This document shows, in pieces, positions 3 through 15,097 of a stretch of 15,579 nt of DNA. Within the stretch, counting starts at the first letter, position 1, and each line of letters starts with the position of its first letter. The notes beneath the pieces were generated by a model. The model did no database searches, had not been told where the DNA came from, and saw nothing but the letters and a program-made list of their open reading frames with translations. The stretch comes from Hyphomicrobiales bacterium. GTDB lineage: Bacteria > Pseudomonadota > Alphaproteobacteria > Rhizobiales > Xanthobacteraceae. The position numbers and the translations under genes were made by a program. The stretch is taken from the NCBI GenBank assembly GCA_003133345.1, contig PKXB01000014.1, forward strand, positions 461 through 16,039, given 5' to 3'.

Positions 3-347
3 GAGATCGAGCGCGCCTATGTCGACAAGGGATACCGCGGCCACGACGCCTCGAACCCACACCGTGTCTTCATCTCCGGCCAGAAGCGCGGCGTGTTCGG
101 CGCCATCAAACGCGAGCTGCGACGCCGTTCCGCCATCGAGCCCGTGATCGGACACATGAAGGCCGAAGGCCATCTCGGCCGTTGCTATCTCAAGGGGACC
201 GCCGGCGACGCCGCCAACGCCATCCTCACCGCCGTCGGCTACAACTTCCGACGCATCCTCGCCTGGCTGAGGATTCTTTTGTGCCTGATCCTGGCCGCGC
301 TATGGCGTGCCCTCGCAACCCATCCCGCACTCAAATTGGCTTGTTAA
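3..347 (+). CDS. IS5-family transposase, C-terminal fragment (5' end outside window)
   Basis: Frame 3 is open from the window edge to the stop at 345-347 and gives about 114 residues. The reading contains a DKGYRGHDA segment, then RRRSAIEPVIGHMKAEGHLG. Its glutamate (in AIEP) and the lysine seven residues later fit the third acidic residue and following basic residue of the DDE catalytic domain of IS5-type transposases. A hydrophobic, arginine-containing C-terminus (NFRRILAWLRILL) closes the protein, as is usual for this group. The N-terminal half with the first two aspartates lies upstream of the window, so intactness cannot be judged. The protein would cut and join the ends of its own insertion sequence. 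I could not identify the right inverted repeat without the left end; it should lie shortly after the stop, somewhere before the next gene. Confidence 0.85.
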   Translation, partial: EIERAYVDKGYRGHDASNPHRVFISGQKRGVFGAIKRELRRRSAIEPVIGHMKAEGHLGRCYLKGTAGDAANAILTAVGYNFRRILAWLRILLCLILAALWRALATHPALKLAC

Positions 348-455
348 CGGACGACTACATACCAAAGTGAAAGACGTCGCATAAGGCATGATCCTCACGG
401 GGGCTGCCGAAAACTTCATCCAAGACACCTGAACTCGCTGGATTACGCAGGCTTG

Positions 456-493
456 CCTGGAGAAGGTTAGTTTGCAGTTCCACTCCCTCCGCC
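456..493. repeat. 38-bp direct repeat, copy 1
   Basis: This sequence begins cctggagaaggttag and ends ctccctccgcc. It recurs in the same orientation at 9852-9889 with one mismatch (a here, t there, twelve bases before the end). Identity stops sharply on both sides. Copy 1 sits between the transposase stop and the aldehyde oxidase fragment. A long near-identical non-coding block at two sites 9.4 kb apart could be a recombination site, the end of a small repeat element, or an attachment-site duplication. Which of these it is cannot be decided from two copies. Confidence 0.8.
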
Positions 494-531: not shown

Positions 532-1389
532 TCAGCTTGCCTTACCGTTCAACTCTGCCTTCACGCGCTCCGGCGTGAACGGAACCGTGCGCAGCCGCGT
601 GCCCGTTGCGTCGTACACGGCGTTGGCGAGCGCCGCGCCAACCGCCGAGCATGCCGCCTCTCCGGCGCCGAGCGGCGGCTCATTCGGCCGATCGATCAGA
701 TCGATGTCGAGCTTGGGCACGTCGGAAAATCTCAGAATCGGATAACTAGACCAATCGAGACTCAATACGCGCGAGCGGTCGAACTTCACCTCTTCCAGCA
801 GCACCCGGCTTAAGGTCTGCAAAATGCTACCTTCGACCTGGGCGCGCACGCCGTCGGGGTTGATGATCTGTCCGCAATCGTGCGCGCAGGCGATGCGCTC
901 GACCGTGATTTTGCCACTCGCGCGATCGACCGCGACCGGCATTGCCATCGCCACATAGGTTTCGCTGTGCTTGTAGTGAACAAAGGAGATCCCACGCCCG
1001 CGCGCGATGGCTGCACTTGTGTCAGCTCCGGGCGACGGCCGGGCTTGCCACTTCATTAGCGCGGCCGTGCGCTTAATGACCTCGATGGCGCGCGGATTCT
1101 TAAGACCGCGCAGGCGAAACTCGATCGGGTCGATGCCCGCCGCAGCCGCCAGTTCGTCAGTGAAGCTCTCGACCGCGAAACAATTGGCCGGCTTGCCGGG
1201 CGAGCGCAGCGGCGCCGGACGCAGCGGCGCCTCTTTCAGCCAATGCACGACGACCTGGATGTGGTCCGCCGCATAGGGCGGGTCGCCGTTCTGCGAGATC
1301 AAACCGGTATTGAGTCCCACGATATTGTCGAGCCCTGCCGCCTGCGGCCCGAGCGCTGGCGATTTCCATTCGAGCGTTCGTGCCGCCAC
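532..1389 (-). pseudogene. Aldehyde oxidase/xanthine dehydrogenase molybdopterin subunit (coxL-type), C-terminal remnant
   Basis: About 285 residues remain of a subunit that normally has roughly 700-800. Recognisable features are SPGKPANCFAVESFTDELA with the following EFRLRGL stretch, the CAHDCGQIINPDGVRAQVEG segment typical of the second molybdenum-binding domain, and EPPLGAGEAA, whose glutamate matches the catalytic Glu of this family. Intact homologues oxidise aldehydes or N-heterocycles at a molybdopterin-cytosine-dinucleotide centre, using separate FAD and 2Fe-2S subunits. Neither partner gene is present here. The first possible start is a GTG at 1387-1389, and an in-frame TGA lies three codons upstream (1396-1398), so the N-terminal two thirds are gone. 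The break coincides with the start of the DNA polymerase gene on the opposite strand, so an insertion or rearrangement at about 1390 is inferred to have removed it. The natural stop at 532-534 looks original. Confidence 0.85.
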
Positions 1390-1946
1390 CGAATGTCAAA
1401 AAATTCACACGGAAGCTTCGCAAGCTGAGGCAAATTCAGTCTGAGTGGACCCTAGTATTTGACACGGAGACAAATACCGACGCCGCACAGGCGCTGCGCT
1501 TCGGTGTCTATCACCTCTATAACGGCGACCAACTGGATGAAGCGGGGATCTTCATCGATCCCGAGATTCTAAGCGGCAAAGAGACATCGTTGCTCACGGC
1601 TTATGCCGCTGCGCATGACTTGAAGCTGATGAACAAAGCTCAATTCATTGATGATGTCTTCTACGGTGTTGCATATGAACTTCGGGCGACCATTATCGGC
1701 TTCAACGAGCCATACGACCTGGCGCGACCTGCCGTTCGGCATAGTTCGGCTCGCGGCAAGACCATGCGCGGCGGCTTTACATTCCAGCTCTCATCGAACT
1801 TATGGAAGCCGCGAGTGCAAATCAAGCATTTGTCAGCGCGTGCAGCGTTTATTCAATTCACGAAGCCGTATCGGCGGTTTGATACACGTGGCAGCGAAAG
1901 AAGGGGCTCGCCGTACCGCCTCGCCGCGGTGCTTTTATCGACGTGA
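1380..1946 (+). CDS. Family B DNA polymerase, N-terminal 3'-5' exonuclease part (separated by frameshift)
   Basis: This 188-residue reading frame holds two of the three proofreading exonuclease motifs of family B polymerases: Exo I as FDTET (Asp28 and Glu30) and Exo II as GFNEPYD (Asn109 to Asp113). The third motif lies in the next frame, so the two frames are pieces of one ancestral protein of about 970 residues. Homology-like sequence runs through IKHLSARAAFIQFTKP (148-163) and then degrades into arginine-rich sequence. The frame that continues the protein (QRKKGLAVPPRRGAFIDVKT) is already readable upstream of 1943 in frame 2, after a stop at 1880-1882. The frame change is therefore placed at about 1890-1906, near an a/g-rich run, and equals loss of one base. 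The start is a GTG at 1380, inside the edge of the aldehyde oxidase remnant, with no convincing ribosome site. The true N-terminus may be missing. Confidence 0.75.
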   Translation: MPPPNVKKFTRKLRKLRQIQSEWTLVFDTETNTDAAQALRFGVYHLYNGDQLDEAGIFIDPEILSGKETSLLTAYAAAHDLKLMNKAQFIDDVFYGVAYELRATIIGFNEPYDLARPAVRHSSARGKTMRGGFTFQLSSNLWKPRVQIKHLSARAAFIQFTKPYRRFDTRGSERRGSPYRLAAVLLST

Positions 1947-4300
1947 AGACAATCGCTGCCGCAATGACGAGCCGATCATTCAAGCTTGGTGCACTGGCTG
2001 ACTTTCTGGAAACCGAGCATCGCAAGCATTCGACGGACGAACACGGCGGACCACTGACCGAAGCTTACCTTGATTATGCCGTCGAAGACGTCCTGGTAAC
2101 GTGGGAATGTTACCGCAAGCTATTCGACAAATTTGAAGACTACGAACTCACGCAAAGTCGCTTAAGTCAGATCTTGAGCGAGGCGAGCTTGGGGAAGGCC
2201 TGTCTCAGAGAGATGGGTATCAAGCCCTGGCGGGAGCTACAGCCGGATTTCCCTGATTGGTTGACCGGTTTGATCATGAGTACCTATTACGGCGGCCGGT
2301 CCGAAGTGCATCTCCGCCGTGTCATAAGCCAAGTGCTCTATTGCGATTTTCTCTCGATGTATCCGAGTGTTTGCACGCTTATGAACCTCTGGCGATTTGT
2401 CGCAGCCAAGGGTGTGAGATGGCACGACAGCACAAAGGAAGTCGCACGATTTCTGCAGCGGGTTAGCCTCGACGAACTGCAAAATCTCGCCACTTGGACC
2501 AAGCTCACCACCATCGTTCAAGTCATGCCCGACGACGACATTTTCCCGGTGCGGGCGAAGTACGCGGATGAAAGGCAAGCAACGATTGGACTGAATTATC
2601 TGACCCGTCGCAAGCCGCTTTGGTTCACGCTGGCTGACTGCATTGCAGCCAAGCTTCTGACCGGCAAATGCGCGGAGGTGCGGCAGGCGATCACTTTTGA
2701 ACCGCTAGGCCCGCAAGACGATTTGAAATCGATCGCGATCATGGGCAATGCGGACTATTCGGTCGATCCAAGCTGTGACGATTTTTACCGCCGCATCATC
2801 GATTTTCGAAGCACGGTCAAAGCCAAGCTGAAGACTTCGGCGGGACTAGTTGCCGACAGGCTCGATAGCGAACAAAATGCCCTGAAGATTTTAGCCAATG
2901 CGACCAGCTACGGCATTTTTGTCGAGTTGAATATCGAGGAGCTGGACGAACGTGAAAAGCGCTTGTGCTATGGCCCCAGCGGCAAGCCGTTTGCAATTAC
3001 CACAAAAAAGAGTGAGGACCCTGGCCGTTATTTCCATCCGTTGCTAGCTACGCTGATTACCGGGGCAGCCCGCCTCATGCTTGCAATCAGTGAAACGCTT
3101 GCCATGCGAGCTAGTCTCGATTGGGCTTTGTGCGATACCGACAGCATGGCGTTGGCAAAGCCGCCATCAATGCCACATGAGGAATTTATCAGACGTGCCA
3201 AATCAGTGTGCGATTGGTTCACACCACTCAATCCTTATGAACAAAAGGCGCCGCTATTCAAAACCGAGAATATCAACTATGGCATCGAGAGCGGCAAACT
3301 GACCAGCGAACTAGCGCCATTGTTCTGCTTTGCCGTGTCAGCGAAGCGCTACGTATTGTTCAATATTGATGCCGATGGCCGTCCTGTAATCCGCAAAGCA
3401 AGCGCACATGGGTTAGGGCATTTACGAGCCCCATATCCAGACATCGACGCACCCAAGTCAATTCCCGCACCGTGTATGCCGTTAGACAAGATTGGCGTCG
3501 AGCGCTGGCAGTATGATCTTTGGTATCAAATCATCGTCGCCGCGCTCGATGGCTATCCGGATCAAGTCGAACTCGACTATCACCCTCTCCTCAGTCAACC
3601 CGCCGCCAGCCGCTATGGCGCTACAACGCCAAAGCTGCTGCGCTGGTTCAAAACCTACAATCAAACCCGGTCCTATCGCGACCAGGTCAAGCCGTTCAAT
3701 TTTCTACTAGCGTTTCAAGCTTCGCCCGCATTGTCAGTTGTCGACGAGAGCTATGAATTTAACGCCCAACCAAAGAGAGGGCCGCGACCTAAAATTCTTT
3801 CCACGCCCAAGCCGATCGCCCCATACAACACTGACATCAAGCGGGCAGCACAAAATTGCTTCGACCGGGAAACCGGCAAACCAATATCCAGCAAAAGCCT
3901 CAAGACCTATCGGGAGGCACTTGCCCAATATCACCTGAGCCCCGAGTCAAAGTTCTTGAATGGGGATTATCTCGATCGTGGACCAACAATCCGTAGGCAT
4001 GTTGAGGTGACTGCAGTTCATCATATTGGAAAAGAAGCAAACCGTTGGGAAGAACAGTTCTATCTTGGTTTTGATGAAGAGGAGCAGATTGAGTATGGCG
4101 TTACGCCGGAGGAATCGAAGAAAACGAGTGACACGCTGAGAAGGGAAATCAATAAAGCTGGTCAGCGCGAGATTGCGAGAGAAACTGGAATTTCGCGGCG
4201 AACAATAGCGCGCGTTATGCAGGGCAAAAGCGTGCGGAAGGGGATCGTTGCTACGGTCATGGCGGCGATTCGGTCACGAAAGGCGTCACGCACTAATTAA
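1943..4300 (+). CDS. Family B DNA polymerase, polymerase domain with C-terminal HTH-like tail
   Basis: The 785-residue frame carries Exo III (YAVED, Tyr45 to Asp49), a YYGGR element (115-119) matching the YxGG linker motif between exonuclease and polymerase domains, motif A (DFLSMYPS, Asp135), motif B (KILANATSYG, 315-324), motif C (CDTDS, Asp398 and Asp400) and a KxY element (AKRY, 467-470). These are the conserved parts of a template-directed family B polymerase. Motif B has one residue more between Asn and Tyr than the common KxxxNSxYG form. After the polymerase core, about 300 residues follow that I cannot assign. They end in QREIARETGISRRTIARVMQ (741-760), which reads as a helix-turn-helix. 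No terminal protein, primase or helicase gene is adjacent. It could belong to the protein-primed (pPolB), primer-independent (piPolB) or another bacterial PolB group; I cannot place it. The 1943 GTG overlaps the previous stop, but the coding frame extends upstream to 1883, so this is probably the rest of one frameshifted gene. Its GC looks lower than that of the operon after 9973. Confidence 0.85.
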   Translation: MKTIAAAMTSRSFKLGALADFLETEHRKHSTDEHGGPLTEAYLDYAVEDVLVTWECYRKLFDKFEDYELTQSRLSQILSEASLGKACLREMGIKPWRELQPDFPDWLTGLIMSTYYGGRSEVHLRRVISQVLYCDFLSMYPSVCTLMNLWRFVAAKGVRWHDSTKEVARFLQRVSLDELQNLATWTKLTTIVQVMPDDDIFPVRAKYADERQATIGLNYLTRRKPLWFTLADCIAAKLLTGKCAEVRQAITFEPLGPQDDLKSIAIMGNADYSVDPSCDDFYRRIIDFRSTVKAKLKTSAGLVADRLDSEQNALKILANATSYGIFVELNIEELDEREKRLCYGPSGKPFAITTKKSEDPGRYFHPLLATLITGAARLMLAISETLAMRASLDWALCDTDSMALAKPPSMPHEEFIRRAKSVCDWFTPLNPYEQKAPLFKTENINYGIESGKLTSELAPLFCFAVSAKRYVLFNIDADGRPVIRKASAHGLGHLRAPYPDIDAPKSIPAPCMPLDKIGVERWQYDLWYQIIVAALDGYPDQVELDYHPLLSQPAASRYGATTPKLLRWFKTYNQTRSYRDQVKPFNFLLAFQASPALSVVDESYEFNAQPKRGPRPKILSTPKPIAPYNTDIKRAAQNCFDRETGKPISSKSLKTYREALAQYHLSPESKFLNGDYLDRGPTIRRHVEVTAVHHIGKEANRWEEQFYLGFDEEEQIEYGVTPEESKKTSDTLRREINKAGQREIARETGISRRTIARVMQGKSVRKGIVATVMAAIRSRKASRTN

Positions 4301-4362
4301 GCTATACTTCCGCTGGCGCATAATGCGAGATGGACCATTGTTTGTTCAGATTTGTCCTTAAT

Positions 4363-4370
4363 GGAGCGGG
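4363..4370 (+). promoter_or_regulatory. Ribosome binding site choosing the start of the TTT binding protein
   Basis: The sequence ggagcggg lies 8-11 bases upstream of an in-frame GTG (4375) and ATG (4378). The earlier in-frame ATG at 4330 lacks a comparable site, and a start there would put 16 extra residues in front of the signal peptide. Confidence 0.5.
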
Positions 4371-4377
4371 TAGCGTG

Positions 4378-5403
4378 ATGTGGGAGAAGTCAAAGGACAG
4401 CATATGGCGCCACCGGCGCGCAGCGGGGCCACTTTCGGCGCTGGCGCTTGTTTCTGTGCTGGCAATCGCGGCCCATGACATCAAACCGGCATCCGCGCAG
4501 GATTGGCCGACGCGCTCGCTGACGATGGTGGTGCCGTTTGCCGCCGGCGGCGGCACCGATGTGATGGCCCGGATCGTCGGTCGCCGCATGTCCGAGATCC
4601 TGGGCCAGGAGGTGAGCGTCCAAAACAAGCCCGGCGCCGGCGGGATGGTCGGTTCAGCGTACGTCGCCAGGGCTAGGCCGGACGGCTACACATTCGTCTT
4701 TGGCAGCAGGTCGGCGGCCATAGATATGACGCTCTACAAACACCCGACTTACAGTTTGCAGAACGACCTGGCCCCGGTCGTCTTGGTTGCGGACCAGCCG
4801 ACGATTTTGGTCGCGCGTAAGGATCTGCCGGTCGACAGGCTGCAGGACTTCATCGCCTATGTGAAGCGCAACGCGAGTACCATTCGAATGGGTTCCGCCG
4901 GCGTCGGCGCTACGGGCTTTGTCGATTGCGCCATATTTAACGGGATGATCGGGGTCAACATCCAGGCAATCCCGTATCGAGGCAGCGGTCCCGCAATGCA
5001 GGATCTGATCACGCGCCAATTCGACTATATGTGCACGATAAGCGGGTCGGCGGCGGCGCCGCTTCAGAACGATCTTATCAAGGGCATCGCAGTGCTCAGG
5101 CACGAACGATTGCCATCGCTGCCCAATGTGCCGACTGCCTATGAGCAGGGCATGGATTTCAACGCCTCGACGTGGTTCGGCTTCTTCGTGCCCAAGGGCA
5201 CTCCAGCCGCGATCATCAAAAAACTTCACGACGTCACCGTCGCCGCAATGGAAACGCCCTGGGTCCAGGAGCAACTCGCTACGATTGGGGCATACGTGGT
5301 GCCGCCCGAACACCGCTCGACGGAATATTTCGAGAGCATCATCGGTCCCGAGATCGAGAAAAACGGGGCGCCGCTCAAGGCGTTGGGAATATCGGTCGAT
5401 TAG
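4378..5403 (+). CDS. Tripartite tricarboxylate transporter (TTT) family substrate-binding protein, Bug/TctC-like
   Basis: The protein (341 residues from the 4378 start) has an N-terminal signal peptide with a basic start (KDSIWRHRR), a hydrophobic core and a likely cleavage after PASAQ. The mature part opens with DWPTRSLTMVVPFAAGGGTDVMARIVG, a hallmark of the Bug family: the PFAAGGGTD loop binds a carboxylate of the ligand. A later AIPYRGSGPAMQDLITRQFDY segment is equally typical. Bug proteins are periplasmic and usually bind small carboxylic acids or aromatic acids for a TctA/TctB membrane pair. No such membrane genes are nearby, so this is an orphan receptor, which is common in this family. 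It runs toward the porin gene and ends shortly before a shared terminator region. A start at 4330 is possible but less likely, given the ribosome site before 4378. The ligand cannot be predicted. Confidence 0.9.
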   Translation: MWEKSKDSIWRHRRAAGPLSALALVSVLAIAAHDIKPASAQDWPTRSLTMVVPFAAGGGTDVMARIVGRRMSEILGQEVSVQNKPGAGGMVGSAYVARARPDGYTFVFGSRSAAIDMTLYKHPTYSLQNDLAPVVLVADQPTILVARKDLPVDRLQDFIAYVKRNASTIRMGSAGVGATGFVDCAIFNGMIGVNIQAIPYRGSGPAMQDLITRQFDYMCTISGSAAAPLQNDLIKGIAVLRHERLPSLPNVPTAYEQGMDFNASTWFGFFVPKGTPAAIIKKLHDVTVAAMETPWVQEQLATIGAYVVPPEHRSTEYFESIIGPEIEKNGAPLKALGISVD

Positions 5404-5464
5404 ACCGGATCGCAATAGCCCTATGCGCGATTGAAGAACCCAATTGAGGTAAAGAAGCTCAAAA

Positions 5465-5494
5465 CATCAGGGCCCGGACTGTAGGTCCGGGCCC
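5465..5494 (-). terminator. Rho-independent terminator for the outer-membrane protein gene
   Basis: A perfect 10-bp inverted repeat (gggcccggac at 5470-5479, gtccgggccc at 5485-5494) has a 5-base loop. On the minus strand the stem is followed by tgatgtttt, a short T-rich tail, about 40 bases after the porin stop. The stem could also block read-through from the converging plus-strand gene, but on that strand no T-run follows it. Confidence 0.75.
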
Positions 5495-5534
5495 ATGATC
5501 TGGTGCAAGCGATTTGTGCACTGCCCCTCTTGCA

Positions 5535-6320
5535 CTAGAAGCGGTAGTTAAGGCCAAGAGTGGCAAGCAACGCATCCTTGACCTGAAAGTTGGTTGTGTA
5601 GGTGGTGCCGAAGGTTCCGGCAGATGTAAGGGTCTTGGTGGCGAAATCGCCATACCATAAGGCTTCTCCGGTGAACGAAACATGCTGACTCACCCGATAC
5701 TCGAAGCCGCCGCCCGCGACCACCCCCGGCACTGTCGAGTCACCGCTGCCCGCCCAATTTCCGCAGCAAGTGCCCGCAATGCCATTGCTATACGTTACAT
5801 GCGCCCAAGCCACGCCGCCGGTGCCGTAGACAAGCAAGTCGTTAAATGCCCATCCCAATCGGCCGCGAATTGAAGCGAGCCGATCAAGCTTTATCGTGCC
5901 GATGGATCCGGGTGGGCCCTCGAGCGGGGGGGGATTGAGACTGCTACTCAGACTGGTCCAGTTCAAGTCTCCGACCACCCCCAAAACGACGGCGTTATAT
6001 TGCCAGTCGTAGCCGGCTCTGAAGCCGCCGGCTACGTTACTATTGCGCGGCATGCCGACCATTGTGCTAGCCGACACTGGCACCGATGAGCATGCGATTT
6101 GGCCAAACTGACCGGCCCCGTTGTTGTTCGACTGGCTGCATTGAGGATCGAAGGTAGCGACGCCGATCTGCCCGCCCACGTAAAAACCAGTCCAGCTGGT
6201 GACAGTCGGGACAGGCGCCATCGGCCGCGGGGCCTTGACCGCCATATCGGCGGCATAGGCGGGAGCCGCCAATCCGACTATTGCTACCGTTGCCAGCAAA
6301 CGCGACCGTACGTTTTTCAT
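5535..6320 (-). CDS. Outer-membrane beta-barrel protein, Omp25/OmpA-like porin family
   Basis: The 261-residue protein begins with a clear signal peptide (MKNVRSRLLATVAIVGLAAPAYA, cleavage about 23/24). A short linker rich in Pro, Ala and Lys follows, then WTGFYVGGQIG, the usual first strand of Omp25/RopB-type barrels of rhizobia and Brucella. Alternating Gly/aromatic strands follow, such as GGFRAGYDWQY, RGRLGWAF and VYGTGGVAWA, and the chain ends in LGLNYRF with the terminal Phe that the outer-membrane assembly machinery recognises. Proteins of this family are small 8-stranded barrels that stabilise the envelope, and many paralogues occur per genome. The start is supported by a GGGGG ribosome site 5 bases before the ATG. 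The gene stands alone with its own terminator. Two Cys pairs (residues about 61 and 77, and a CC) are slightly unusual for a barrel. Confidence 0.9.
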   Translation of the reverse strand: MKNVRSRLLATVAIVGLAAPAYAADMAVKAPRPMAPVPTVTSWTGFYVGGQIGVATFDPQCSQSNNNGAGQFGQIACSSVPVSASTMVGMPRNSNVAGGFRAGYDWQYNAVVLGVVGDLNWTSLSSSLNPPPLEGPPGSIGTIKLDRLASIRGRLGWAFNDLLVYGTGGVAWAHVTYSNGIAGTCCGNWAGSGDSTVPGVVAGGGFEYRVSQHVSFTGEALWYGDFATKTLTSAGTFGTTYTTNFQVKDALLATLGLNYRF

Positions 6321-6351
6321 TAATACCCCCTGAAATCAGCCGTGAAAACCG

Positions 6352-6386
6352 ATCAAACTTAACAGCCTCAATCAAACTTAACAGCC
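6352..6386. repeat. Tandem 16-bp direct repeats upstream of the outer-membrane protein gene
   Basis: The 16-mer atcaaacttaacagcc occurs perfectly at 6352-6367 and again at 6371-6386, a 19-bp period. It lies 32-66 bases upstream of the porin ATG, inside the 5' untranslated or promoter region. Just upstream (6391-6409) is an inverted repeat, aagtga-7-tcactt. Two evenly spaced copies could be sites for a regulator, or a simple duplication. I see no convincing -35/-10 pair. Confidence 0.7.
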
Positions 6387-6606
6387 CCATAAGTGAGAGT
6401 CTGTCACTTTTTAGCAACACTCAATACATATCGACCACCATCCACTGCTTGGCGATGTAATGTTTAAAATCAATGTCTTAATTACAAAATGTGCTTGGGC
6501 GGCTTTGGGGCGCCTGCAAAAACTAGCGTTGGGTTTAACTCATCTACACCGCGACGACGAATGATCCTCACCAACGAGAGCGCCATTTAGTTTTCCGATG
6601 GGTTGG
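6387..6606. other. Intergenic stretch between porin and ligase genes
   Basis: Apart from the inverted repeat at 6391-6409 (aagtga, 7-base spacer, tcactt), I see no gene, RNA or repeat here. It should contain the promoter of the minus-strand porin gene and the 3' end of the minus-strand ligase transcript. No obvious terminator hairpin follows the ligase stop. Confidence 0.4.
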
Positions 6607-8058
6607 TCAATCCGCAGATCTGAAAAGTTTCACGAGCTGACCCCGCTCGATCTTGGCCATATCGTTGCGCGGAATTTTCTCGACCGCGATGAAGCGGACC
6701 GGAATAAAAATAGCTTGCAGTCTCTGCGCGCAATGCTTCCGAAGTTCTGCTTCGTCGAAGGCCTTATTCGTCACAATCAACGCATAGATTTCCTCGATGC
6801 CGAGTTCGTTGGGGATGTTCAGCACGGCGACATCGGCAATAGCGGGAAAGGCGGCAAGCACCTCCTCCACGATTTCTGGATTTATTTTGTCGCCGCCGAC
6901 ATTCAAAAGCGTTTCCTGTCGCCCAGTGACGACCAATAGATCGTCCTCACGCAGATAACCGACGTCGCCCGGATAGAACCAGCCCCCGCGAAAGTGCCGC
7001 GCTGACGTTTCCGGATCGCCGAGGTAGCAGTCCGCGGCCTGCGCCGTGCGAACGCGGACAATTCCCTCCTTGCCGCGCGGCAAAGGCCGATCGCCCGCAT
7101 CGACGATCGCCGCCTCCGCATCCGGCAAGATGAAGCCGACGGCGCCTGGGACTTCTACCGCAACACGTGCATCCCCCGACGCAACCGCGCCGGTTTCTGC
7201 TGCGCCATAAGTGGTGATCAGATTGGGGCACATCCTCGCCCAGGCGCGCACGGCTAGCTGCTTCGTCAGCGATCCGCCAGCGACCAGGATGTGATCGAAG
7301 TTGCAGTGAAAGGTGGGCTGCGCTTCGTAGAATTTCAGATACTCGGCCAAACCATATGGCGAGGTAACCATATTCTCCATCGAATATAGATTTAAGCACT
7401 GTAACGTAGTCGTGGCATCGTCGCCGTAGAGCAGGATCATGCCGCCGCGCGCCAGCATATAGACCACGTAGTAAAAACCAAGCGAGGAGCTTAAGCCGAG
7501 GTCGCAAAACATTCGGGAACTTGAAGACCAGCGATCGAGCCGCGTGTAATCGAGCCGGGCGTTCTTTTCGAGAAGTTTGTGGTGGCTGAAACCGACCCCT
7601 TTGGGAATGCCGGTCGAGCCGGAGGTGAGAATGATCCGGCATAATTGATCGCCGTCGCAGGCGAAGCGTGGATCGTGAAACGGCTTGCCATCGCCGTCTA
7701 ACCATTTCCGATCGGCCAAAATGATTCGACCGGCATTGGCAAAAGGTCCAAGCGTGTCGGTGACAACCGCGGCAGCAGCAAGTTCCTTGGGCAGCGACCG
7801 ACCGCGGCAAGACACAGTGACGATCCCGATCCGCGTCAAAGCCAGCGTGAGAACAACGTGAAAAATCTTATCGTTTAACAAAACTCCGACCGTCTCCCCG
7901 GCTGCCAGGCCAAGCCCCAGGACCACACGAGACACGTTGTGAATCATTCTCTCGATCTGCGCGTAGCTGATGGGTTCGAAGTTAACGCCGGGCGCGCAAA
8001 TTGCCGGCTGGTCAGCATTGATCCGGCATTGAAACAAAATCGGATCGACGATGTTCAC
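6607..8058 (-). CDS. AMP-dependent acyl/aryl-CoA ligase-like enzyme (ANL superfamily), intact
   Basis: Read from the GTG at 8056-8058 the protein has 483 residues and all core motifs of adenylate-forming enzymes: the phosphate-binding loop LTSGSTGIPKG (144-154), the TTYGAAETG motif (282-290), WFYPGDVGYL (360-369) with the ribose-binding Asp365, the hinge GR (379-380) followed by LLNVGGDKINP, and the C-terminal catalytic lysine in NDMAKIERG (about Lys469). It should activate a carboxylic acid as an acyl-adenylate and pass it to CoA or a carrier protein. The acid is unknown and no carrier protein gene is visible. The length is slightly short for the family. The start overlaps the upstream gene's stop as GTGA, and its first residues (NIVDPILFQCR) match those of that neighbour (NIVEPIFAQCR). 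A longer reading from 8133 is therefore rejected. The pair looks co-translated. Confidence 0.85.
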   Translation of the reverse strand: MNIVDPILFQCRINADQPAICAPGVNFEPISYAQIERMIHNVSRVVLGLGLAAGETVGVLLNDKIFHVVLTLALTRIGIVTVSCRGRSLPKELAAAAVVTDTLGPFANAGRIILADRKWLDGDGKPFHDPRFACDGDQLCRIILTSGSTGIPKGVGFSHHKLLEKNARLDYTRLDRWSSSSRMFCDLGLSSSLGFYYVVYMLARGGMILLYGDDATTTLQCLNLYSMENMVTSPYGLAEYLKFYEAQPTFHCNFDHILVAGGSLTKQLAVRAWARMCPNLITTYGAAETGAVASGDARVAVEVPGAVGFILPDAEAAIVDAGDRPLPRGKEGIVRVRTAQAADCYLGDPETSARHFRGGWFYPGDVGYLREDDLLVVTGRQETLLNVGGDKINPEIVEEVLAAFPAIADVAVLNIPNELGIEEIYALIVTNKAFDEAELRKHCAQRLQAIFIPVRFIAVEKIPRNDMAKIERGQLVKLFRSAD

Positions 8059-9194
8059 GGCTTCGCGCTTTCCGCTTGACTGGAAATGATCAGCATATTG
8101 TCGCCGGTGAGGTAACCGCGGTCGCTCAAGCAAACCCGGCCGCGTTGCGTTTCACTGCGATCGTCGAGTACTTGCGCAATCCCGTAATCGGTGGAGATGC
8201 GCAGCTTGCCCTCTATGCCCGCGGGCAAAGCACGGCCTTCATTGTCGACAATTTCGACGCTCACGCCTGGCAAGACAAATCCGACGGCGCCGGGGTTCCG
8301 TATGGCCAAATGCGCCGGCATTGAGGCCACCATCGTTGTGTCCATTGCCAGGTAACCGACCGTTAAATTGGGGCAAATACGGCTGTGAGTTCGTTGCCAA
8401 AGATCCTCTGGTAGCCCGTTTAGGCAGAAGACCGCTTCCAATTGACTCTGAGAACAGCGGCGCTGCTCGATTGCCGTAACGAAATCGAGCAAACTCTGCG
8501 CCGAGGCAACGATGTTCTGAACCTGATAAATGGGGAGAGCCTCGATCGTCTTTTCCGGCTGACCTCGCATGATCAGCGCGCCACCGCGCCAGAGCGTCGC
8601 CAGGAGGACTTGAAATCCAAGCGGCGTGGCCAGTGGCTGATCAAGATATGTTCGAGCGCAAAATGGGGCTCGCCGTCCCAAAAACAATTTCAGTCGCTCG
8701 ATGCCGGCAATCACCATGCGGTTGGTAACCGCGATTCCTTTTTCTTCGCCGGCGTCCATGGGGGCAAGAAATATCCGGCTAATATCGTCAAGCGCGGGAT
8801 TATAAAAATGGACTCGCTCTGACGTGCTTTTACTCGTCGTCCAATCAAATTGAGCGACGATTACTCGAGCTGCGGGAAAATCCTGCTGGCGATCAGTAAC
8901 GATCGCATCGACCACAAAGCGCCACGAAAAGTTTCGCTTGCAGCCAGAAATCGTAACTGCACCGACTTTCATCAAGGCGATGAGCACAATGGAATGAAAG
9001 ATCGGATCATCGATGAATACAGCAACCCGATGGCGCGGCTTTATGCCGGCGGAAAGGAGACGCCCGCAAACATTATTCGCCGACCTCTCCAAGCGGCCGT
9101 AGCTGATCAAATTAAACTGCGTGCCCGGCGCGCATAGCGCGAGGTCCGCCGGTTTATTCCTGCACTGGGCGAAGATTGGCTCAACGATGTTCAT
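8055..9194 (-). CDS. Degenerate AMP-binding protein: N-domain paralogue without catalytic motifs
   Basis: The 379-residue protein is collinear with the intact ligase directly downstream: NIVEPIFAQCR and CAPG at the same positions, VPGVSVEIVDNEGRALPAGIEGKLRI-like C-terminal strands, and similar spacing throughout. Every catalytic signature is altered. The P-loop position (144-154) reads APMDAGEEKGI instead of TSGSTGIPKG, the YGAAETG position reads GYLAMDTT, and the ribose-binding Asp region reads VCLSDRGYL. The chain stops at the hinge (GDNMLIISSQAESAKP), so the whole C-terminal domain with the catalytic lysine is missing. Adenylation by this protein is not expected. The long open frame and the GTGA overlap with the intact gene argue that it is still translated. 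It might be a regulatory or structural pseudoenzyme partner, or an early-stage relic of a tandem duplication. No strong ribosome site precedes its ATG. Confidence 0.75.
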   Translation of the reverse strand: MNIVEPIFAQCRNKPADLALCAPGTQFNLISYGRLERSANNVCGRLLSAGIKPRHRVAVFIDDPIFHSIVLIALMKVGAVTISGCKRNFSWRFVVDAIVTDRQQDFPAARVIVAQFDWTTSKSTSERVHFYNPALDDISRIFLAPMDAGEEKGIAVTNRMVIAGIERLKLFLGRRAPFCARTYLDQPLATPLGFQVLLATLWRGGALIMRGQPEKTIEALPIYQVQNIVASAQSLLDFVTAIEQRRCSQSQLEAVFCLNGLPEDLWQRTHSRICPNLTVGYLAMDTTMVASMPAHLAIRNPGAVGFVLPGVSVEIVDNEGRALPAGIEGKLRISTDYGIAQVLDDRSETQRGRVCLSDRGYLTGDNMLIISSQAESAKP

Positions 9195-9627
9195 ATCTTG
9201 ATGTCAAATGCCTTTGCTGGCTAGCTTCCAGTGTCGTGATAGGAGTTGCGTGCGAGGCTTTGATCTTATTGCAGTCCGCCACGCTGTTCAATTTCTGATC
9301 GATAATCAAGGAATGGATTGCCGTGGATTTCGCCGTTAGTCGGCACGCACGAAACCTCGACCTGCCCCATTTTTCGGACCGCACAAACTCCGCCTTCGCC
9401 TGCTGAGCTCGCAATGGATATCAAGAACGCCATTACTCTAAAAGTGCTAGGGAGAGATGAAAAGTGGCTCCTGGATTGGTTTGTGGAAGATCCTGGTCTC
9501 CCGGCAACCAGCACTCTGGATTGCGGGATATGGCCGCAAGGGCCCGGCTGCTACCCCCAGTGCTTACCCCAGCGCGGACGGCGAAGGTCTTACTGAACGC
9601 GGGTTCGCTATAACCCATTCATCTCAT
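9195..9627. other. Gene-poor stretch between ligase pair and tRNA remnant
   Basis: Short overlapping frames exist on both strands, but none has recognisable motifs, a good ribosome site or clear coding character. A small hairpin (gggtt, 6-base loop, aaccc at 9601-9616) sits just beyond the 3' end of the tRNA fragment on the minus strand and could be the old 3' flank of that tRNA. The segment should contain the promoter of the minus-strand ligase pair, but I cannot point to it. Confidence 0.4.
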
Positions 9628-9680
9628 TGGCGCGCCGGAAGGGATTCGAACCCCTGACCCCCAGATTCGAAGTCTGAAGG
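9628..9680 (-). tRNA. 3' half of a tRNA-Arg(UCG) gene, probable attachment-site remnant
   Basis: Read on the minus strand, the fragment starts in the anticodon arm (tcaga, loop cttcgaa, tctgg), giving anticodon UCG for arginine CGA codons. It continues through a short variable region and a T arm (aggggttcgaatccctt), then the 3' acceptor strand ccggcgc, discriminator g and encoded CCA at 9630-9628. The 5' half (acceptor 5' strand and D arm) is absent: beyond 9680 the sequence turns A/T-rich and unrelated. Duplicated tRNA 3' halves are left when an integrative element inserts into a tRNA gene and restores the intact copy at its other end. By that rule the element extends toward higher coordinates from here. 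The fragment cannot make a functional tRNA. Confidence 0.8.
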
Positions 9681-9709
9681 TCCGTTAAAAAATATTCCGA
9701 CGACGGACC
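9679..9709. repeat. Inverted repeat at the tRNA remnant boundary
   Basis: The sequence ggtccgt (9679-9685) is matched by acggacc (9703-9709) across a 17-base A/T-rich spacer, exactly where tRNA similarity ends. It could be an arm or accessory site of the recombination junction, or chance. Confidence 0.45.
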
Positions 9710-9972
9710 AAGAGTGGCCTACTTTGGCCGCTATCACTATACCCCCCGTTCCTTTGATTAGGGAATTTGCGCCTAACCGTCTGCGCCGACGCCGTTATTT
9801 GGGGTCTCTGGCGTGCCGGGGGCCACGATTTTGCAAAGTTCCCTGTCCTTTCCTGGAGAAGGTTAGTTTGCAGTTCCTCTCCCTCCGCCACTTGCGCGCA
9901 AACTTCTGGCCTCCCTGTCTTCTTTTCCAATTTGTGCTCAGATGCCGCCCCTGATAAAGGAGCGTAGAGGCC
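9710..9972. other. Leader region of the catabolic operon
   Basis: No gene is recognised between the tRNA remnant and the dehydratase. The segment holds the second copy of the 38-bp repeat (9852-9889) and the ribosome site aaaggag (9956-9962), ten bases before the dehydratase ATG. It must also contain the operon promoter, unless transcription enters from further upstream. I could not identify a -35/-10 pair or an operator. The minus-strand frame that spans this stretch overlaps the dehydratase start and has no family features. Confidence 0.4.
9852..9889. repeat. 38-bp direct repeat, copy 2
   Basis: This is the partner of 456-493, in the same orientation with one mismatch. In this copy the last bases plus the next one read ttcctctccctccgcca, which resembles the 3' end of a bacterial tRNA-Ser acceptor with its CCA. 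The preceding bases do not form a T arm, so it is not a tRNA end as it stands. Its place about 170 bp from the tRNA-Arg remnant, inside the inferred element side, makes an integration-related origin plausible. Confidence 0.8.
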
Positions 9973-11778
9973 ATGGGCCGGAAACCATCTCAATCGCGCG
10001 GGCGCCGGCTGCGCTCGCAACTCTGGTTCGACAATCCAGACAATCCGGGGATGACCGCGCTCTATCTTGAGCGCTATCTGAACTACGGGCTGACCAAGCA
10101 AGAACTCACATCGGGCAAGCCGATCATCGGTATTGCGCAGACCGGGTCGGATCTATCGCCCTGCAATCGCCATCACCTCGAACTCGCCGAGCGCGTACGC
10201 GCCGGTATTCGCTCGGCCGGCGGCATCGCCTTCGAATTTCCGGTGCATCCGCTGCAGGAAACCGGCAAGCGGCCGACCGCCGCGCTCGATCGCAATCTTG
10301 CTTATCTCGGCCTGGTCGAAGTTCTCTACGGCTATCCGCTCGATGGCGTCGTTCTCACGACCGGCTGCGACAAGACCACACCGGCCTGCTTGATGGCGGC
10401 GGCAACGGTCAACATTCCGGCCATCGTGCTGTCGGGCGGACCGATGCTCAACGGCTGGTGGAAAGGGGAGCGCGCGGGCTCCGGCACGGTGGTTTGGCAG
10501 GCGCGCGCCGACCACGCGGCCGGCAAGATCAGTTACACGGAATTCATCGACGTCGTTACCTCGTCGGCCCCCTCGGTCGGCCACTGCAACAGCATGGGTA
10601 CCGCCTCGACGATGAATGCGCTGGCAGAAGCACTGGGCATGTCGCTGCCGGGTTGTGCGGCGATCCCCGCGCCCTATCGCGAGCGCGCGCAAATCGCCTA
10701 TGAAACCGGCGTACGCGCCGTTGAAATCGTGCATGACGACCTCAGGCCGACGGAAATTTTGACCCGCGCGGCATTCGAGAACGCCATCGTCGCCTGTTCG
10801 GCCATTGGCGGCTCAACCAACGCGCCGATTCACATCAATGCGATCGCACGTCACGTCGGGGTGAAACTGTCGATCGAGGATTGGGAAAAGGTCGGCTACG
10901 ACGTGCCGCTGCTCGTCGACATGCAGCCCGCCGGAAAATATCTCGGCGAAGACTATTACCGCGCCGGTGGACTGCCGGCCGTGATGCACGAGTTGTTCAA
11001 GGCCGGCCGCATTCATGGCGACGCCAATACTATCAACGGCAAAACGATGGCGGAGAACGTCCGGCGCGCGAAGGTGCAGAATTCCGATGTGATCCGGCCT
11101 TACGCAAAGCCGATGAAAAAGCAGGCTGGTTTCAAGGTACTCAAGGGCAACCTGTTCGCTTCCGCCATCATGAAGACGAGCGTGGTCTCCGATGAGTTCC
11201 GAAAACGCTATCTTTCGAATCCGAAAAAACCGAATGCTTTCGAAGGCCGCGCCGTCGTGTTCGAGGGCCCGGAAGATTATCATCACCGCATTGAAAACCC
11301 GTCGCTGAAGATCGACGAGAACACGCTGCTGGTCATTCGCGGCGTCGGTGCGATCGGCTATCCGGGCTCCGCCGAAGTGGTGAACATGCAGCCGCCGGCG
11401 GCCTTGATAAAAAATGGCATCACCGCGCTGGCGTGCATCGGCGACGGCCGGCAGTCCGGCACGTCCGGCTCGCCGTCGATACTCAACGCGTCGCCGGAAG
11501 CGGCGGCCGGCGGCGGGCTGGCGCTGCTGCAAACCGGCGATCGGATTCGCATCGACCTTGTCAAAGGCAGGGCCGACATTTTGATATCAAAAGTAGAGCT
11601 CGCGCGGCGGCGGGCGGCGCTCGAAAAGCGCGGCGGCTTTGCATATCCCGCGAGCCAGACGCCGTGGCAGGAAATTCAGCGCGCCATGGTCGACCAACTG
11701 GCCGATGGAATGGTGCTCAAGCCGGCCGTTAAATATCAGCGCATTGCACAGAAGCACGTTCCGCGGGACAATCACTGA
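9973..11778 (+). CDS. IlvD/EDD-family dehydratase, probably a sugar-acid (aldonate) dehydratase
   Basis: The 601-residue protein has the three cysteines expected for the Fe-S cluster of this family: Cys64 in [10 protein letters not shown], Cys132 in TTGCDKTTP (whose Lys134 fits the metal-binding lysine) and Cys205 in [11 protein letters not shown]. It also has the [10 protein letters not shown] motif at 490-499, near the catalytic serine. The [20 protein letters not shown] form and overall length match L-arabinonate, D-xylonate and related dehydratases rather than the branched-chain enzyme IlvD; substrate assignment within this group is not safe. It would convert an aldonic acid to its 2-keto-3-deoxy acid in the cytoplasm. 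The ATG has an aaaggag site ten bases upstream. The next gene begins 14 bases after its stop and encodes a dehydrogenase suited to the product, followed by a sugar ABC transporter, which supports a catabolic role. Confidence 0.88.
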
Positions 11779-13777: not shown

Positions 13778-15097
13778 ATGACGATGATTACACGCCGTAC
13801 GCTGGTTGGAACTGGCACGGCGCTGGCTGCCGCCGGCGCGCTCACCGGGCCGGCATTGCTCGATTGGGCCAAGGCCTGGGCGCAGGCCGCGCCCTGGAAG
13901 CCGGAAAAGGGCGCAGCGCTGTCGCTGTTGCGCTGGAAGTACTTCGTGCAGTCGGAAGACGACCAGTTCGTAAAACTCATCGACGCGTTCACTAAGGCCA
14001 CCGGTGTGAAGGTTGCGATCTCGCGCGAATCCTATGAAGACGTGCAGCCGAAGGCGTCGGTCGCCGCCAATACCGGCGCCGGCCCGGATATGTTCTGGGG
14101 CCTATATTCGCTGCCGCATCTGTTCCCGCAGAAATGCGTCGATATGACCGACGTCGCCGACTATCTCGGCAAGAAATACGGCGGCTGGGTCGAGTCCGCG
14201 CAGAAATACGCGATGAACGGTAAGAAATGGATCGCCATTCCGATCTGCTACAGCGGCAATATGCTGAACTATCGCCTTGAAGCGTCGAAGAAGGCGGGCT
14301 TCTCCAAATTCCCGACCAAAACCGACGAGTTCCTCGAATACGCCAAGGCGATGAAGAAGAACAACACGCCGGGCGGCTTCGCGCTCGGGCACGCTTCGGG
14401 CGATGGCAATGCCTGGGTTTACTGGTGCCTATGGGCGCATGGCGGCAATGTTGTCGACAAGAGCGACAAGGTGACGATCAATTCTCCGGAAACTGAGAAA
14501 GCGCTCGTTTACGCCAAGCAAATCTACGAAAACATGATACCCGGAACGGCGGCGTGGAACGACGCCTCCAACAACAAGGCGTTCCTCGCCGGCGAGATCA
14601 ACTGGACCGACAACGGTATCTCGATCTATGTCGCCGCGAAAAAGGATCCCACGAAGACCAACATCGCCAAAGACATGGATCATGCGGTCTGGCCGGTCGG
14701 CCCGGTCGGTAAACCGACAGAACTGCATCTGATGTATCCAATCATGGCGATGACGCACACGAAATACCCGCAAGCTTGCAAAGCACTGATTGCGTTCATG
14801 CTGGAGTCGGACCAGTTCAACAAATGGCTAGAGGAATCGCAGGGCTACTTGACCCATTGCCTCAACGCCTATGACAAGAATCCGATCTGGACCGCCGACC
14901 CGAAGAACACGATCTTCGGCGAAGCGGGCAAGCGCACCTTGACCGCCGGCGGTCTCGGTTCGGTCGGCGAGAAGGCGGCGGCGGCTATTGCCGACTTCGT
15001 GGTGCTCGACATGTTTGCGAGCTTCTGCACTGGCCGCGAAGACGCCAAAGGCGCGATCAAGATCGCCGAGCGCCAACTACAGCGAATCTATCGCTGA
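13778..15097 (+). CDS. Extracellular solute-binding protein of a carbohydrate ABC importer (family 1)
   Basis: The 439-residue protein starts at the ATG after cggaggaa, which excludes longer upstream starts inside the ATPase gene. The N-terminus ITRRTLVGTGTALAAAGA has a twin-arginine pattern and then a hydrophobic stretch, with likely cleavage after AWAQA, so export as a folded protein by the Tat system is inferred. The mature part follows the family 1 layout: LSLLRWKYFV, DAFTKATGVKVAISRESYEDVQPK, GPDMFWGLY, WIAIPICYSGNMLNYR, and AFLAGEINWTDNG in the second lobe. It should bind the transported sugar or sugar derivative in the periplasm and deliver it to the permease. The 19-base gap after the ATPase gene supports one transcript. 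A ligand cannot be read from the sequence; the nearby aldonate enzymes suggest a sugar or sugar acid. Confidence 0.9.
   Translation: MTMITRRTLVGTGTALAAAGALTGPALLDWAKAWAQAAPWKPEKGAALSLLRWKYFVQSEDDQFVKLIDAFTKATGVKVAISRESYEDVQPKASVAANTGAGPDMFWGLYSLPHLFPQKCVDMTDVADYLGKKYGGWVESAQKYAMNGKKWIAIPICYSGNMLNYRLEASKKAGFSKFPTKTDEFLEYAKAMKKNNTPGGFALGHASGDGNAWVYWCLWAHGGNVVDKSDKVTINSPETEKALVYAKQIYENMIPGTAAWNDASNNKAFLAGEINWTDNGISIYVAAKKDPTKTNIAKDMDHAVWPVGPVGKPTELHLMYPIMAMTHTKYPQACKALIAFMLESDQFNKWLEESQGYLTHCLNAYDKNPIWTADPKNTIFGEAGKRTLTAGGLGSVGEKAAAAIADFVVLDMFASFCTGREDAKGAIKIAERQLQRIYR

What the first reader, a model, noticed from the sequence alone, without database searches (positions are those of the whole stretch)
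1380..4300. Orphan family B DNA polymerase with a C-terminal helix-turn-helix tail
Exo I-III, the YxGG element, motifs A, B and C and KxY are all visible, yet the gene stands without a terminal protein, primase, helicase or integrase. About 300 residues follow the polymerase core and end in an HTH-like segment (QREIARETGISRRTIARVMQ). A DNA-binding tail on a PolB suggests a self-contained replication module of a mobile element that recognises its own origin. The known bacterial mobile PolBs (protein-primed pPolB and the primer-independent piPolB of pipolins) are possible relatives, but membership is not shown here.
Basis: partly seen in the sequence, partly recalled or inferred. Interest (0 to 1): 0.72.

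Follow-up and report, generated by a model that had tools for sequence, protein, structure and literature searches.

The report
Broken casposon polymerase gene, HTH tail
The lone DNA polymerase gene in this bacterium is a broken left-over of a casposon, a rare jumping element that moves with a Cas1 protein related to the one in CRISPR immunity, and the DNA-binding tail that caught the eye is a common feature of that element's polymerase.

Summary
A family B polymerase lies at about 1356-4300 with all exonuclease and polymerase motifs and a Cro/CI-type helix-turn-helix tail. It is not an intact module: it lost its start codon at a junction with a truncated xdhA gene (about 1354-1367) and its frame changes near 1900. 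I searched the two pieces apart and did not mend it. Ten of ten full-length homologues found sit in one block with Cas1, an HNH-like gene and a conserved ~190-aa gene. Three of these have delimited ends: inverted terminal repeats (GGGGTATA...) with 13-19 bp direct repeats outside. These are casposons. Motif C (CDTDS) fits the published PolB_CDTDS group. A terminal repeat identical over 18 bases to another casposon's end lies at window 9730-9747. The own genome (83% complete) shows no Cas1. So the gene is 'orphan' because the rest of the element is gone from this spot, not because it works alone. It keeps 139 of 141 family-invariant residues, so the break is recent, or an assembly error. Pipolin or protein-primed membership is not supported. 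By-products: intact bacterial casposons carrying Mom, ParB/RepB, a serine recombinase and a Na+/H+ antiporter. New member of a known kind.

The parts
3..347 (+). C-terminal fragment of an IS5-family transposase at the window's left end
   Evidence: NCBIfam NF033578 6.3e-28 over profile 328-419, below the curated cut-off as expected for a fragment; Pfam PF13751 1.3e-5
532..1362 (-). C-terminal part of a molybdenum-binding (xanthine dehydrogenase-like) subunit, truncated; some 475 N-terminal residues missing by comparison with G935
   Evidence: Four congeners have 751-790 aa frames matching from residue 10 of the window ORF at 80-89%; DNA homology to all four ends at 1354
1354..1367 (.). Junction of truncated xdhA and 5'-truncated polB; no casposon terminal repeat here
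   Evidence: xdhA homology ends 1354-1362; polB homology starts about 1356; no TIR match here
1356..1904 (+). polB piece 1: N-terminal and exonuclease part with Exo I and Exo II, start codon lost
   Evidence: Alignment with 5 and then 10 homologues; 20 of 21 residues invariant in the other 10 are kept
1872..1913 (+). Region where the polB reading frame changes (frameshift); described only, not mended
   Evidence: Frames read, alignment, positions
1943..4300 (+). polB piece 2: Exo III, palm and fingers motifs (A, B, C = CDTDS), thumb, conserved C-terminal region
   Evidence: 50-56% identity to five homologues; 139 of 141 columns invariant in the 10 others are kept; GC 0.527 over 1363-4300 against 0.640 (xdhA part) and 0.619 (9973-11778)
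4106..4294 (+). C-terminal helix-turn-helix of PolB (residues 722-784)
   Evidence: AlphaFold helices at 722-739, 741-748, 752-759, 766-784, tail model mean pLDDT 79, Cro/CI-type neighbours, weak Pfam HTH hits
4330..9194 (.). Genes between polB and the terminal repeat: TctC receptor (+), outer-membrane beta-barrel (-), two AMP-binding enzymes (-). Cargo or host genes: undecided
   Evidence: Pfam; no match to 5403-9609 among the listed rows of a DNA search of 43 genus genomes, 6 candidates scored per genome, list cut
9627..9676 (-). 3' half of a tRNA-Arg(tcg) gene
   Evidence: 50 of 50 identical to G000:C38, where ARAGORN finds the whole gene (L091:842-918); ARAGORN finds no tRNA in the window
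9714..9747 (-). Casposon-type terminal repeat, right-end orientation; core GGGGTATAGTGATA at 9732-9745
   Evidence: 18/18 match to the L021 casposon end; 0.01 matches expected in shuffles at up to 3 mismatches; about 32 bp shared with three other sites in the genus
9748..9761 (+). Candidate target-site half (GTTCCTTTGATTAG) inside a dispersed repeat of the genus (9744-9846)
   Evidence: Compare GTTCCGTTGAGTAG beside the C171 terminal repeat and in the uninterrupted copy in congener G933 (L066); 12 of 14 alike, so not a proven duplication

Best explanation
The gene is the polymerase of a bacterial casposon, of the PolB_CDTDS kind, left behind as a recent pseudogene. In the intact relatives Cas1 lies on one strand and a conserved ~190-aa gene, an HNH-like gene and PolB on the other; in three of them inverted terminal repeats enclose this block and some cargo. 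Inferred working: PolB copies the excised or displaced casposon DNA, probably from a host-made primer; the HTH tail tethers the polymerase to element DNA, most likely the terminal or subterminal repeats; Cas1 (the casposase) joins the ends to a target, giving direct repeats of about 14-15 bp. In the window this cannot happen: the partner genes are absent, polB has lost its start and frame, and one terminal repeat, 5.4 kb downstream, may mark the old right end. Shown: the polymerase family, the Cas1-HNH-PolB block in 10 of 10 full-length homologues, TIRs with flanking direct repeats in three of them, the lesions in the window, the TIR at 9730-9747. Inferred: replication role, priming, what the tail binds, and that polB and this TIR come from one insertion.
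For: Cas1 (PF01867, 1.9e-43 to 1.5e-28) beside polB in 8 of 8 loci sent to Pfam: L003, L004, L006, L019-L023; in L005 and, as a contig-end fragment, in L010 by phmmer. HNH-like and ~190-aa genes in 10 of 10 by phmmer. The Cas1 profile's best solved structure is 6opm, 4e-43, against 1.3e-29 for the next; 6OPM is the M. mazei casposase-DNA complex (PMC6977970, passages). TIRs and direct repeats in L019, L021, L022. CDTDS in the window and nine of ten others, CDTDG in L023; PolB_CDTDS includes the A. boonei casposon PolB (PMC7544198 section 13). Family 2 casposon PolBs have a C-terminal HTH, and family 3 casposons occur in bacteria (PMC4046053, passages). polB GC 0.527 against 0.62-0.64 in flanking genes. 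Three exact TIR cores in the own genome against 0.026 expected at equal base frequencies. Congener G931 has the same extended TIR 4.8 kb from a Cas1 remnant.
Against: No Cas1, HNH-like or ~190-aa gene is in the window or its 39 kb contig, and no Cas1 in the genome at E up to 0.1 (83% complete), so casposon origin rests on homologues and the TIR. The TIR is 5.4 kb from polB, against 2.3-4.0 kb in L019, L021 and L022, and the genes between look like host metabolism. C171 and C200 carry the same TIR core without casposon genes. Seven of ten full-length homologues gave no clear GGGGTATA-type TIR pair on the flanks held. Pfam did not confirm an HTH in the ~190-aa protein or in the gene beside Cas1 (two of each sent), and gave one sub-threshold HNH match among four HNH-like proteins sent. 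The polymerase is hardly decayed (139/141), which fits a very recent break or an assembly fault as well as a relic. L022 shows the tail is dispensable in at least one member.
Confidence: 0.9

Rival explanations
1. It is a protein-primed PolB or a primer-independent piPolB of a pipolin-like element.
For: PF03175 (organellar and viral type B) matches weakly: 2.1e-4, below cut-off, in the window; above cut-off in homologues L003 and L022.
Against: PF00136 matches at a similar strength. The full-length homologues carry Cas1, three with flanking direct repeats, and no terminal-protein gene was recognised in the blocks, though none was searched for by profile. Kazlauskas 2020 puts pPolB+piPolB and PolB_CDTDS in different clusters. 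No relative in 50,697 phage or 72,556 plasmid records.
Confidence: 0.04
2. The window joins unrelated pieces by an assembly fault: an intact casposon polB of this or another strain stitched to xdhA, with the frameshift a base error.
For: A fragmented draft assembly (3.43 Mb, 238 contigs, 83% complete); the junction falls inside two coding regions within about 10 bp with no TIR at it; polB is almost undecayed.
Against: Another casposon mark (the TIR) lies in the same contig. Similar cut-down polB remnants without Cas1 in the held flanks occur elsewhere (L007, L008, L009), one of them in a complete chromosome (L008, Acidithiobacillus sp. YTS05).
Confidence: 0.2
3. polB and the terminal repeat at 9730-9747 come from different insertions; the genes between them are ordinary host genes.
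For: Three separate TIR copies in this genome. The TIR lies at a dispersed repeat beside a tRNA-Arg 3' half, typical of a busy integration site. The genes between are metabolic and their GC (0.566 over 4301-9713) is between that of polB and of the flanks.
Against: Orientation fits one element (polB points to the right TIR). An intact casposon, L021, also carries host-like cargo, a Na+/H+ antiporter inside its TIRs. No match to 5403-9609 was listed in congeners, which fits an accessory block (limited scoring, list cut).
Confidence: 0.5
4. A host gene: the polymerase was taken over for a cell function after the casposon was lost.
For: The protein sequence is under evident constraint (139 of 141 invariant positions kept).
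Against: No start codon on the conserved frame and a frameshift. Among the 11 genomes listed as own or same genus only the own one has it, and no polB match is listed for the other 42 congeners in the DNA search (limited scoring).
Confidence: 0.04

Closest known systems
Casposons of families 2 and 3 of Krupovic et al. 2014 (PMC4046053)
   Same: PolB beside Cas1 and HNH-like genes in the full-length relatives; C-terminal HTH on PolB (reported for family 2); presence in bacteria (family 3); TIRs and direct repeats (published median 15).
   Different: The window holds only a 5'-truncated, frameshifted polB and one candidate TIR, without Cas1. Family 3 was not tested against its reference sequences, and the HTH genes of the published core were not confirmed by Pfam here.
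PolB_CDTDS cluster (Kazlauskas et al. 2020, PMC7544198)
   Same: Motif C reads CDTDS; the cluster includes a casposon polymerase; weak matches to both PF00136 and PF03175 here, in line with the cluster's described links to PolBmain and pPolB.
   Different: Membership was judged by motif and profile behaviour here, not by clustering with its members.
Methanosarcina mazei casposon MetMaz-C1 (PMC10359463)
   Same: TIR begins GGGATATAGGTAA, resembling GGGGTATAGTGATA; 14 bp direct repeats.
   Different: Archaeal; intact, and its movement in cells is reported by that paper.
Pipolins (piPolB) and protein-primed PolB elements
   Same: Bacterial mobile elements that carry their own family B polymerase (recalled).
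   Different: The full-length relatives here carry Cas1; another PolB cluster; no terminal protein recognised.

Membership tests
Casposon (as a superfamily) | Family B polymerase gene of a casposon type | tested here: met
   50-56% identity to polymerases of Cas1-bearing elements; CDTDS motif C
Casposon (as a superfamily) | Cas1 (casposase) gene in the element | tested here: not met
   None in the window, its contig or the 83%-complete genome; present in 10 of 10 full-length homologues. So the window is a remnant, not a casposon
Casposon (as a superfamily) | Terminal inverted repeats | tested here: inconclusive
   One end found (9730-9747, 18/18 to L021); no partner in the window
Casposon (as a superfamily) | Target-site duplication, usually 14-15 bp | tested here: inconclusive
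   Direct repeats of 13, 19 and 18 bp (including overlap with the TIR) in L019, L021, L022; in the own genome only similar (12 of 14), not identical, flanks at different sites
Family 3 casposon | Bacterial host, HNH gene and conserved HTH protein(s) | tested here: inconclusive
   For the homologues, not the window: HNH-like and ~190-aa genes in 10 of 10 by similarity; Pfam confirms neither firmly
Family 3 casposon | Cas1 and PolB branch with NitAL212-C1, HenMar-C1, StrAlb-C1 | not tested
   Reference sequences were not fetched; the in-family tree has no outside references and resolves one fork only
PolB_CDTDS | Motif C CDTDS | tested here: met
   10 of 11 sequences CDTDS, one CDTDG
Pipolin (piPolB) | piPolB sequence cluster; tyrosine integrase and att repeats (features recalled) | tested here: inconclusive
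   No piPolB model was matched or used; no integrase gene seen in the window, but a tRNA 3' half is present
Protein-primed PolB element | PF03175 above its cut-off and a terminal-protein gene next to polB | tested here: not met
   Window PF03175 20.7 bits against cut-off 25.8. No terminal-protein gene was recognised, but such proteins diverge and could be missed
HTH-tailed polymerase | C-terminal HTH fold | tested here: met

The most novel reading that the evidence does not exclude
The window is a decapitated casposon of about 8.4 kb (1362-9747) that carried a metabolic block (tricarboxylate receptor, outer-membrane protein, two AMP-binding enzymes) between polB and its right terminal repeat, and its PolB tail reads the subterminal motif (AAAGTAGGCCAC-like) of its own terminal repeats. 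It would be one of a broad, scarcely described set of bacterial CDTDS casposons that share the terminus GGGGTATAGTGATA and also move Mom-type DNA modification, ParB/RepB, antiporter and recombinase genes.
Probability: 0.25. Interest if true: 0.6.

Novelty: new member of a known kind. Interest (0 to 1): 0.4.

Why it matters
Casposons are thought to be the source of the CRISPR adaptation machinery, yet few bacterial ones are described (four in the 2014 paper). Three have TIRs and flanking direct repeats that share a terminus with each other and, in part, with the archaeal MetMaz-C1. The PolB HTH tail in one-, two- and zero-copy forms makes 'what does the tail bind?' directly testable. The window itself warns that a lone mobile-type polymerase may be a remnant rather than a stand-alone replicon.

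Tried and rejected
Pipolin/pPolB reading: rejected on context, see rivals. Phage or plasmid polymerase: no tblastn hit in either collection with the window piece or with L003 PolB, none confirmed in viral contigs with one protein or a six-row alignment. A TIR directly after the polB stop (4301-4330): looked for by eye, only a short GTATAGCT-like match, not used. Structure of the whole polymerase piece: model too poor (pLDDT 41.9), so no fold search was made with it. In-family PolB tree: 11 rows, one supported fork of eight, so it says nothing on the window's sister. Solved structures for PolB: none with the window piece at E up to 1; the six-row profile finds family B polymerases and HTH proteins only at E 0.0015 or worse. 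tRNA-based insertion as the explanation of the polB junction: the tRNA-Arg 3' half lies at the other end and its meaning stays open. Direct repeat 452-493 / 9848-9889 as element ends: no evidence found. No Rfam family in the window. Long inverted repeats in L003 and L005 made of polB 3'-end copies were not counted as TIRs, nor was a 14-base inverted pair in L006 (GAAGGGGGTACAGG).

Papers: PMC4046053 (abstract, passages, section 7), PMC7544198 (passages, section 13), PMC9939771, PMC9966878, PMC10359463, PMC6977970 (passages only). Of 87 papers holding 'casposon' or 'casposase' I saw a list of 40. Not in print by my searches, which cover open-licence PMC text only: casposon with Mom and 'DNA modification' (0 papers), casposons with Rhizobiales. 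Casposons with Bradyrhizobium and casposon with Acidithiobacillus and 'bacterial genomes' gave one paper each, seen as listing only.

Full report
OBSERVATION. The window lies in a 39.4 kb contig (G000:C57:461-16039) of a draft assembly of 238 contigs, 83% complete. The polymerase is split over two frames, 1380-1946 and 1943-4300. Aligned apart with homologues, the first piece holds the N-terminus, Exo I and Exo II, the second Exo III, YxGG, motifs A, B, C and KRY (positions). The frame changes between about 1872 and 1913. Upstream of GTG 1380 the frame is open to a stop at 1311-1313 with no start codon, but the family's conserved IRAF/IRAY segment is read at 1368-1379, so the true start is lost. 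Its GC is 0.527 (1363-4300), against 0.640 in the xdhA part and 0.619 in 9973-11778.

THE LEFT JUNCTION. On the minus strand the ORF 532-1389 is the C-terminal part of a molybdenum-binding subunit. In a search of 43 genomes of the genus, four congeners (G935, G942, G931, G191) have an orthologue at 80-89% identity in frames of 751-790 aa; the match starts at residue 10 of the window ORF. At DNA level homology stops at 1354 in all four. Thus xdhA and polB meet within about 10 bases, inside both genes. No terminal repeat is there, so this is not a casposon end but a deletion, a rearrangement or an assembly fault.

HOMOLOGUES AND CONTEXT. The 785-aa piece found 7 relatives in one scan of GTDB contigs (L003-L009). 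It matched 2 of 198 genomes drawn from the family, one of them the own. With a six-row profile it matched 3 of 385 class genomes and 6 of 398 phylum genomes, own genome included in each and the samples overlapping. No match in 50,697 phage or 72,556 plasmid records (same with L003 PolB), none confirmed in viral contigs. Ten loci hold a full-length PolB: L003, L004, L005, L006, L010, L019, L020, L021, L022, L023. All 10 hold a Cas1 (in L010 only the part before the contig ends), a conserved ~190-aa protein and an HNH-like protein in the same relative order and orientation. Cas1 was confirmed by Pfam in 8 of the 8 sent (L003, L004, L006, L019-L023). The names of the small genes are weaker: of four HNH-like proteins sent to Pfam (L003, L004, L006, L019) one gave a sub-threshold HNH match and three none; of two ~190-aa proteins sent (L003, L004) none gave an HTH match at a useful level; and the gene beside Cas1, sent for L003 and L004, gave none either. 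I take them for the HNH and HTH genes of the published casposon core by position and length. The gene beside Cas1 was matched by sequence in 4 of 10 (L003, L004, L005, L019). Four loci hold only parts of polB or a broken polB and no Cas1 in the held flanks: the window, L007, L008, L009.

THESE ARE CASPOSONS. The profile of nine Cas1 proteins matches 6opm best among solved structures (4e-43, next 1.3e-29), and 6OPM is the M. mazei casposase (PMC6977970, passages). Inverted repeats flank the block in L019, L021 and L022, all starting GGGGTATA(G/A), with direct repeats outside: CCATCAAGGGGGG, CCCCGGCACAAGGCCGGGG and CCCCCGCTAGTGCAGGGG, of 13, 19 and 18 bases counting G-runs shared with the repeat. 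Published casposon duplications have a median of 15 and often overlap the TIR (PMC4046053 section 7). MetMaz-C1 ends in GGGATATAGGTAACTC and has 14 bp duplications (PMC10359463, passages). The other seven (L003, L004, L005, L006, L010, L020, L023) gave no clear GGGGTATA-type pair on the flanks held; L004 has two such repeats back to back downstream of polB, L006 a 14-base inverted pair of another sequence, L003 and L005 long inverted repeats made of polB 3'-end copies.

THE POLYMERASE GROUP AND ITS TAIL. Motif C reads CDTDS in the window and nine of ten homologues, CDTDG in L023. Kazlauskas et al. [quoted passage not shown] That fits the weak double match to PF00136 and PF03175. Krupovic et al. 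2014 already describe an HTH at the C-terminus of family 2 casposon PolBs and family 3 casposons in bacteria (PMC4046053, passages). Here the tail looks single in the window, L004 and L019, double in L003, L005, L006, L010, L020, L021 and L023, and absent in L022. Pfam supports an HTH, at least weakly, in six of the eleven (window, L003, L004, L005, L006, L019); for L010, L020, L021 and L023 it is my reading of the alignment, with no Pfam HTH match. The predicted fold of the window's tail is a four-helix HTH whose nearest structures are Cro, HipB and control proteins, none with E at or below 0.001.

THE TERMINAL REPEAT IN THE WINDOW. GGGGGGTATAGTGATAGC occurs at 9730-9747 (minus strand), 18 of 18 with one end of L021, with 0.01 matches expected in shuffles. 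The 14-base core has three exact copies in the own genome (0.026 expected at equal base frequencies), one in 42 other congeners (about 1.3 expected over all 43, so unremarkable by number), and one in 288 other class genomes. The three own copies and the G931 copy also share most of the next ~18 bases (GYGGNNAAAGTAGGCCA). In G931 a Cas1 remnant lies 4.8 kb inside that end (59.6% over 47 aa and 42% over 38 aa), in the orientation of an intact left end. This ties the extended sequence to casposons in this genus. Against: C171 and C200 of the own genome carry it with no casposon gene found, and the own genome shows no Cas1 at E up to 0.1. The flanks at C171 and the window look like two sides of one dispersed repeat, present uninterrupted in G933, as expected for insertions into that repeat. 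The flanking 14-mers agree at 12 of 14 positions only, so they are not the two ends of one proven insertion.

WHAT HAPPENED HERE. polB piece 2 keeps 139 of the 141 positions that are invariant in the ten others (the others, each left out in turn, keep 0.92-1.00), and piece 1 keeps 20 of 21. The break is therefore recent, or an assembly fault. Between polB and the TIR lie a TctC receptor, an outer-membrane protein and two AMP-binding genes, GC 0.566 over 4301-9713. In the genus-wide DNA search (43 genomes, 6 candidates scored in each, list cut) only the TctC part, the tRNA part and the xdhA edge matched in the listed rows. In L049-L059, eleven congener loci around the dehydratase gene, homology to the window's right side begins at 9986-10012 in every one, apart from a separate match to the 9744-9846 repeat in L049 (about 1.1-1.5 kb of upstream flank held). 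Both results allow the block 1362-9747 to be one accessory insertion but do not show it. L021 shows that a TIR-bounded casposon can carry host-like genes: a Na+/H+ antiporter (PF06965, 1.1e-139) and a sigma factor lie inside it.

MECHANISM AND STATUS. Shown: group, context, ends of three intact relatives, lesions. Inferred: PolB replicates the element from a host primer (the 2014 authors' proposal), the tail tethers it to element DNA, Cas1 integrates it. The window copy should be inert.

NOVELTY. A new, broken member of a known kind. The intact relatives are the more useful result: Mom-family proteins (PF25680) in two of them, a serine recombinase with two ParB/RepB genes in L021, where the 2014 paper reports no serine or tyrosine recombinase in its islands.

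Noticed in passing
L004:5529-6242 and L006:4464-5318: Two casposon blocks carry a Mom-family DNA-modification gene (PF25680, 6.7e-47 and 7.5e-48) next to a gene I take for ParB-like (by eye; Pfam gave no ParB match for the L004 one), between the Cas1 side and the PolB operon.
   Followed up: partly
L021:4481-17743: A TIR-bounded casposon that also holds a large serine recombinase, two RepB/ParB-type genes, an ECF-like sigma factor and a Na+/H+ antiporter.
   Followed up: partly
L003:103-311; L005:638-915 and 13891-14124: In two Nitrosomonas casposons the 3' end of polB (HTH-coding) recurs at the flanks: inverted copies 88% and 81% identical and, in L005, a further copy in the direction of polB.
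   Followed up: no
L004:12915-12965: Two casposon terminal repeats stand back to back with exactly 15 bases between them, as if a second element sat next to the first and shared its target-site copy.
   Followed up: partly
L008:10001-12755: Acidithiobacillus sp. YTS05 (complete chromosome) has a broken casposon polB in pieces and one terminal repeat (2 mismatches) 1.3 kb downstream, a remnant much like the window.
   Followed up: partly
window 9627-9676: The 3' half of a tRNA-Arg(tcg) gene, a typical integrase attachment remnant, lies 53 bases from the 18-base terminal repeat.
   Followed up: partly
window 452-493 and 9848-9889: A 42-base direct repeat, 95% identical, 9.4 kb apart, beside the xdhA end and just beyond the terminal repeat.
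   Followed up: partly
window 6607-9194: Two tandem AMP-binding genes on the minus strand; Pfam finds the C-terminal domain in only one of them.
   Followed up: no
L006:803-2422: This casposon Cas1 (539 aa) has a C-terminal segment with a sub-threshold HTH_3 match (9.5e-4), like the fusions reported for other casposons.
   Followed up: no
L022:11280-14030: An Eco57I/MmeI-type methylase or restriction-modification enzyme (PF07669 2.1e-40) is cargo between polB and the right terminal repeat of an intact casposon.
   Followed up: no
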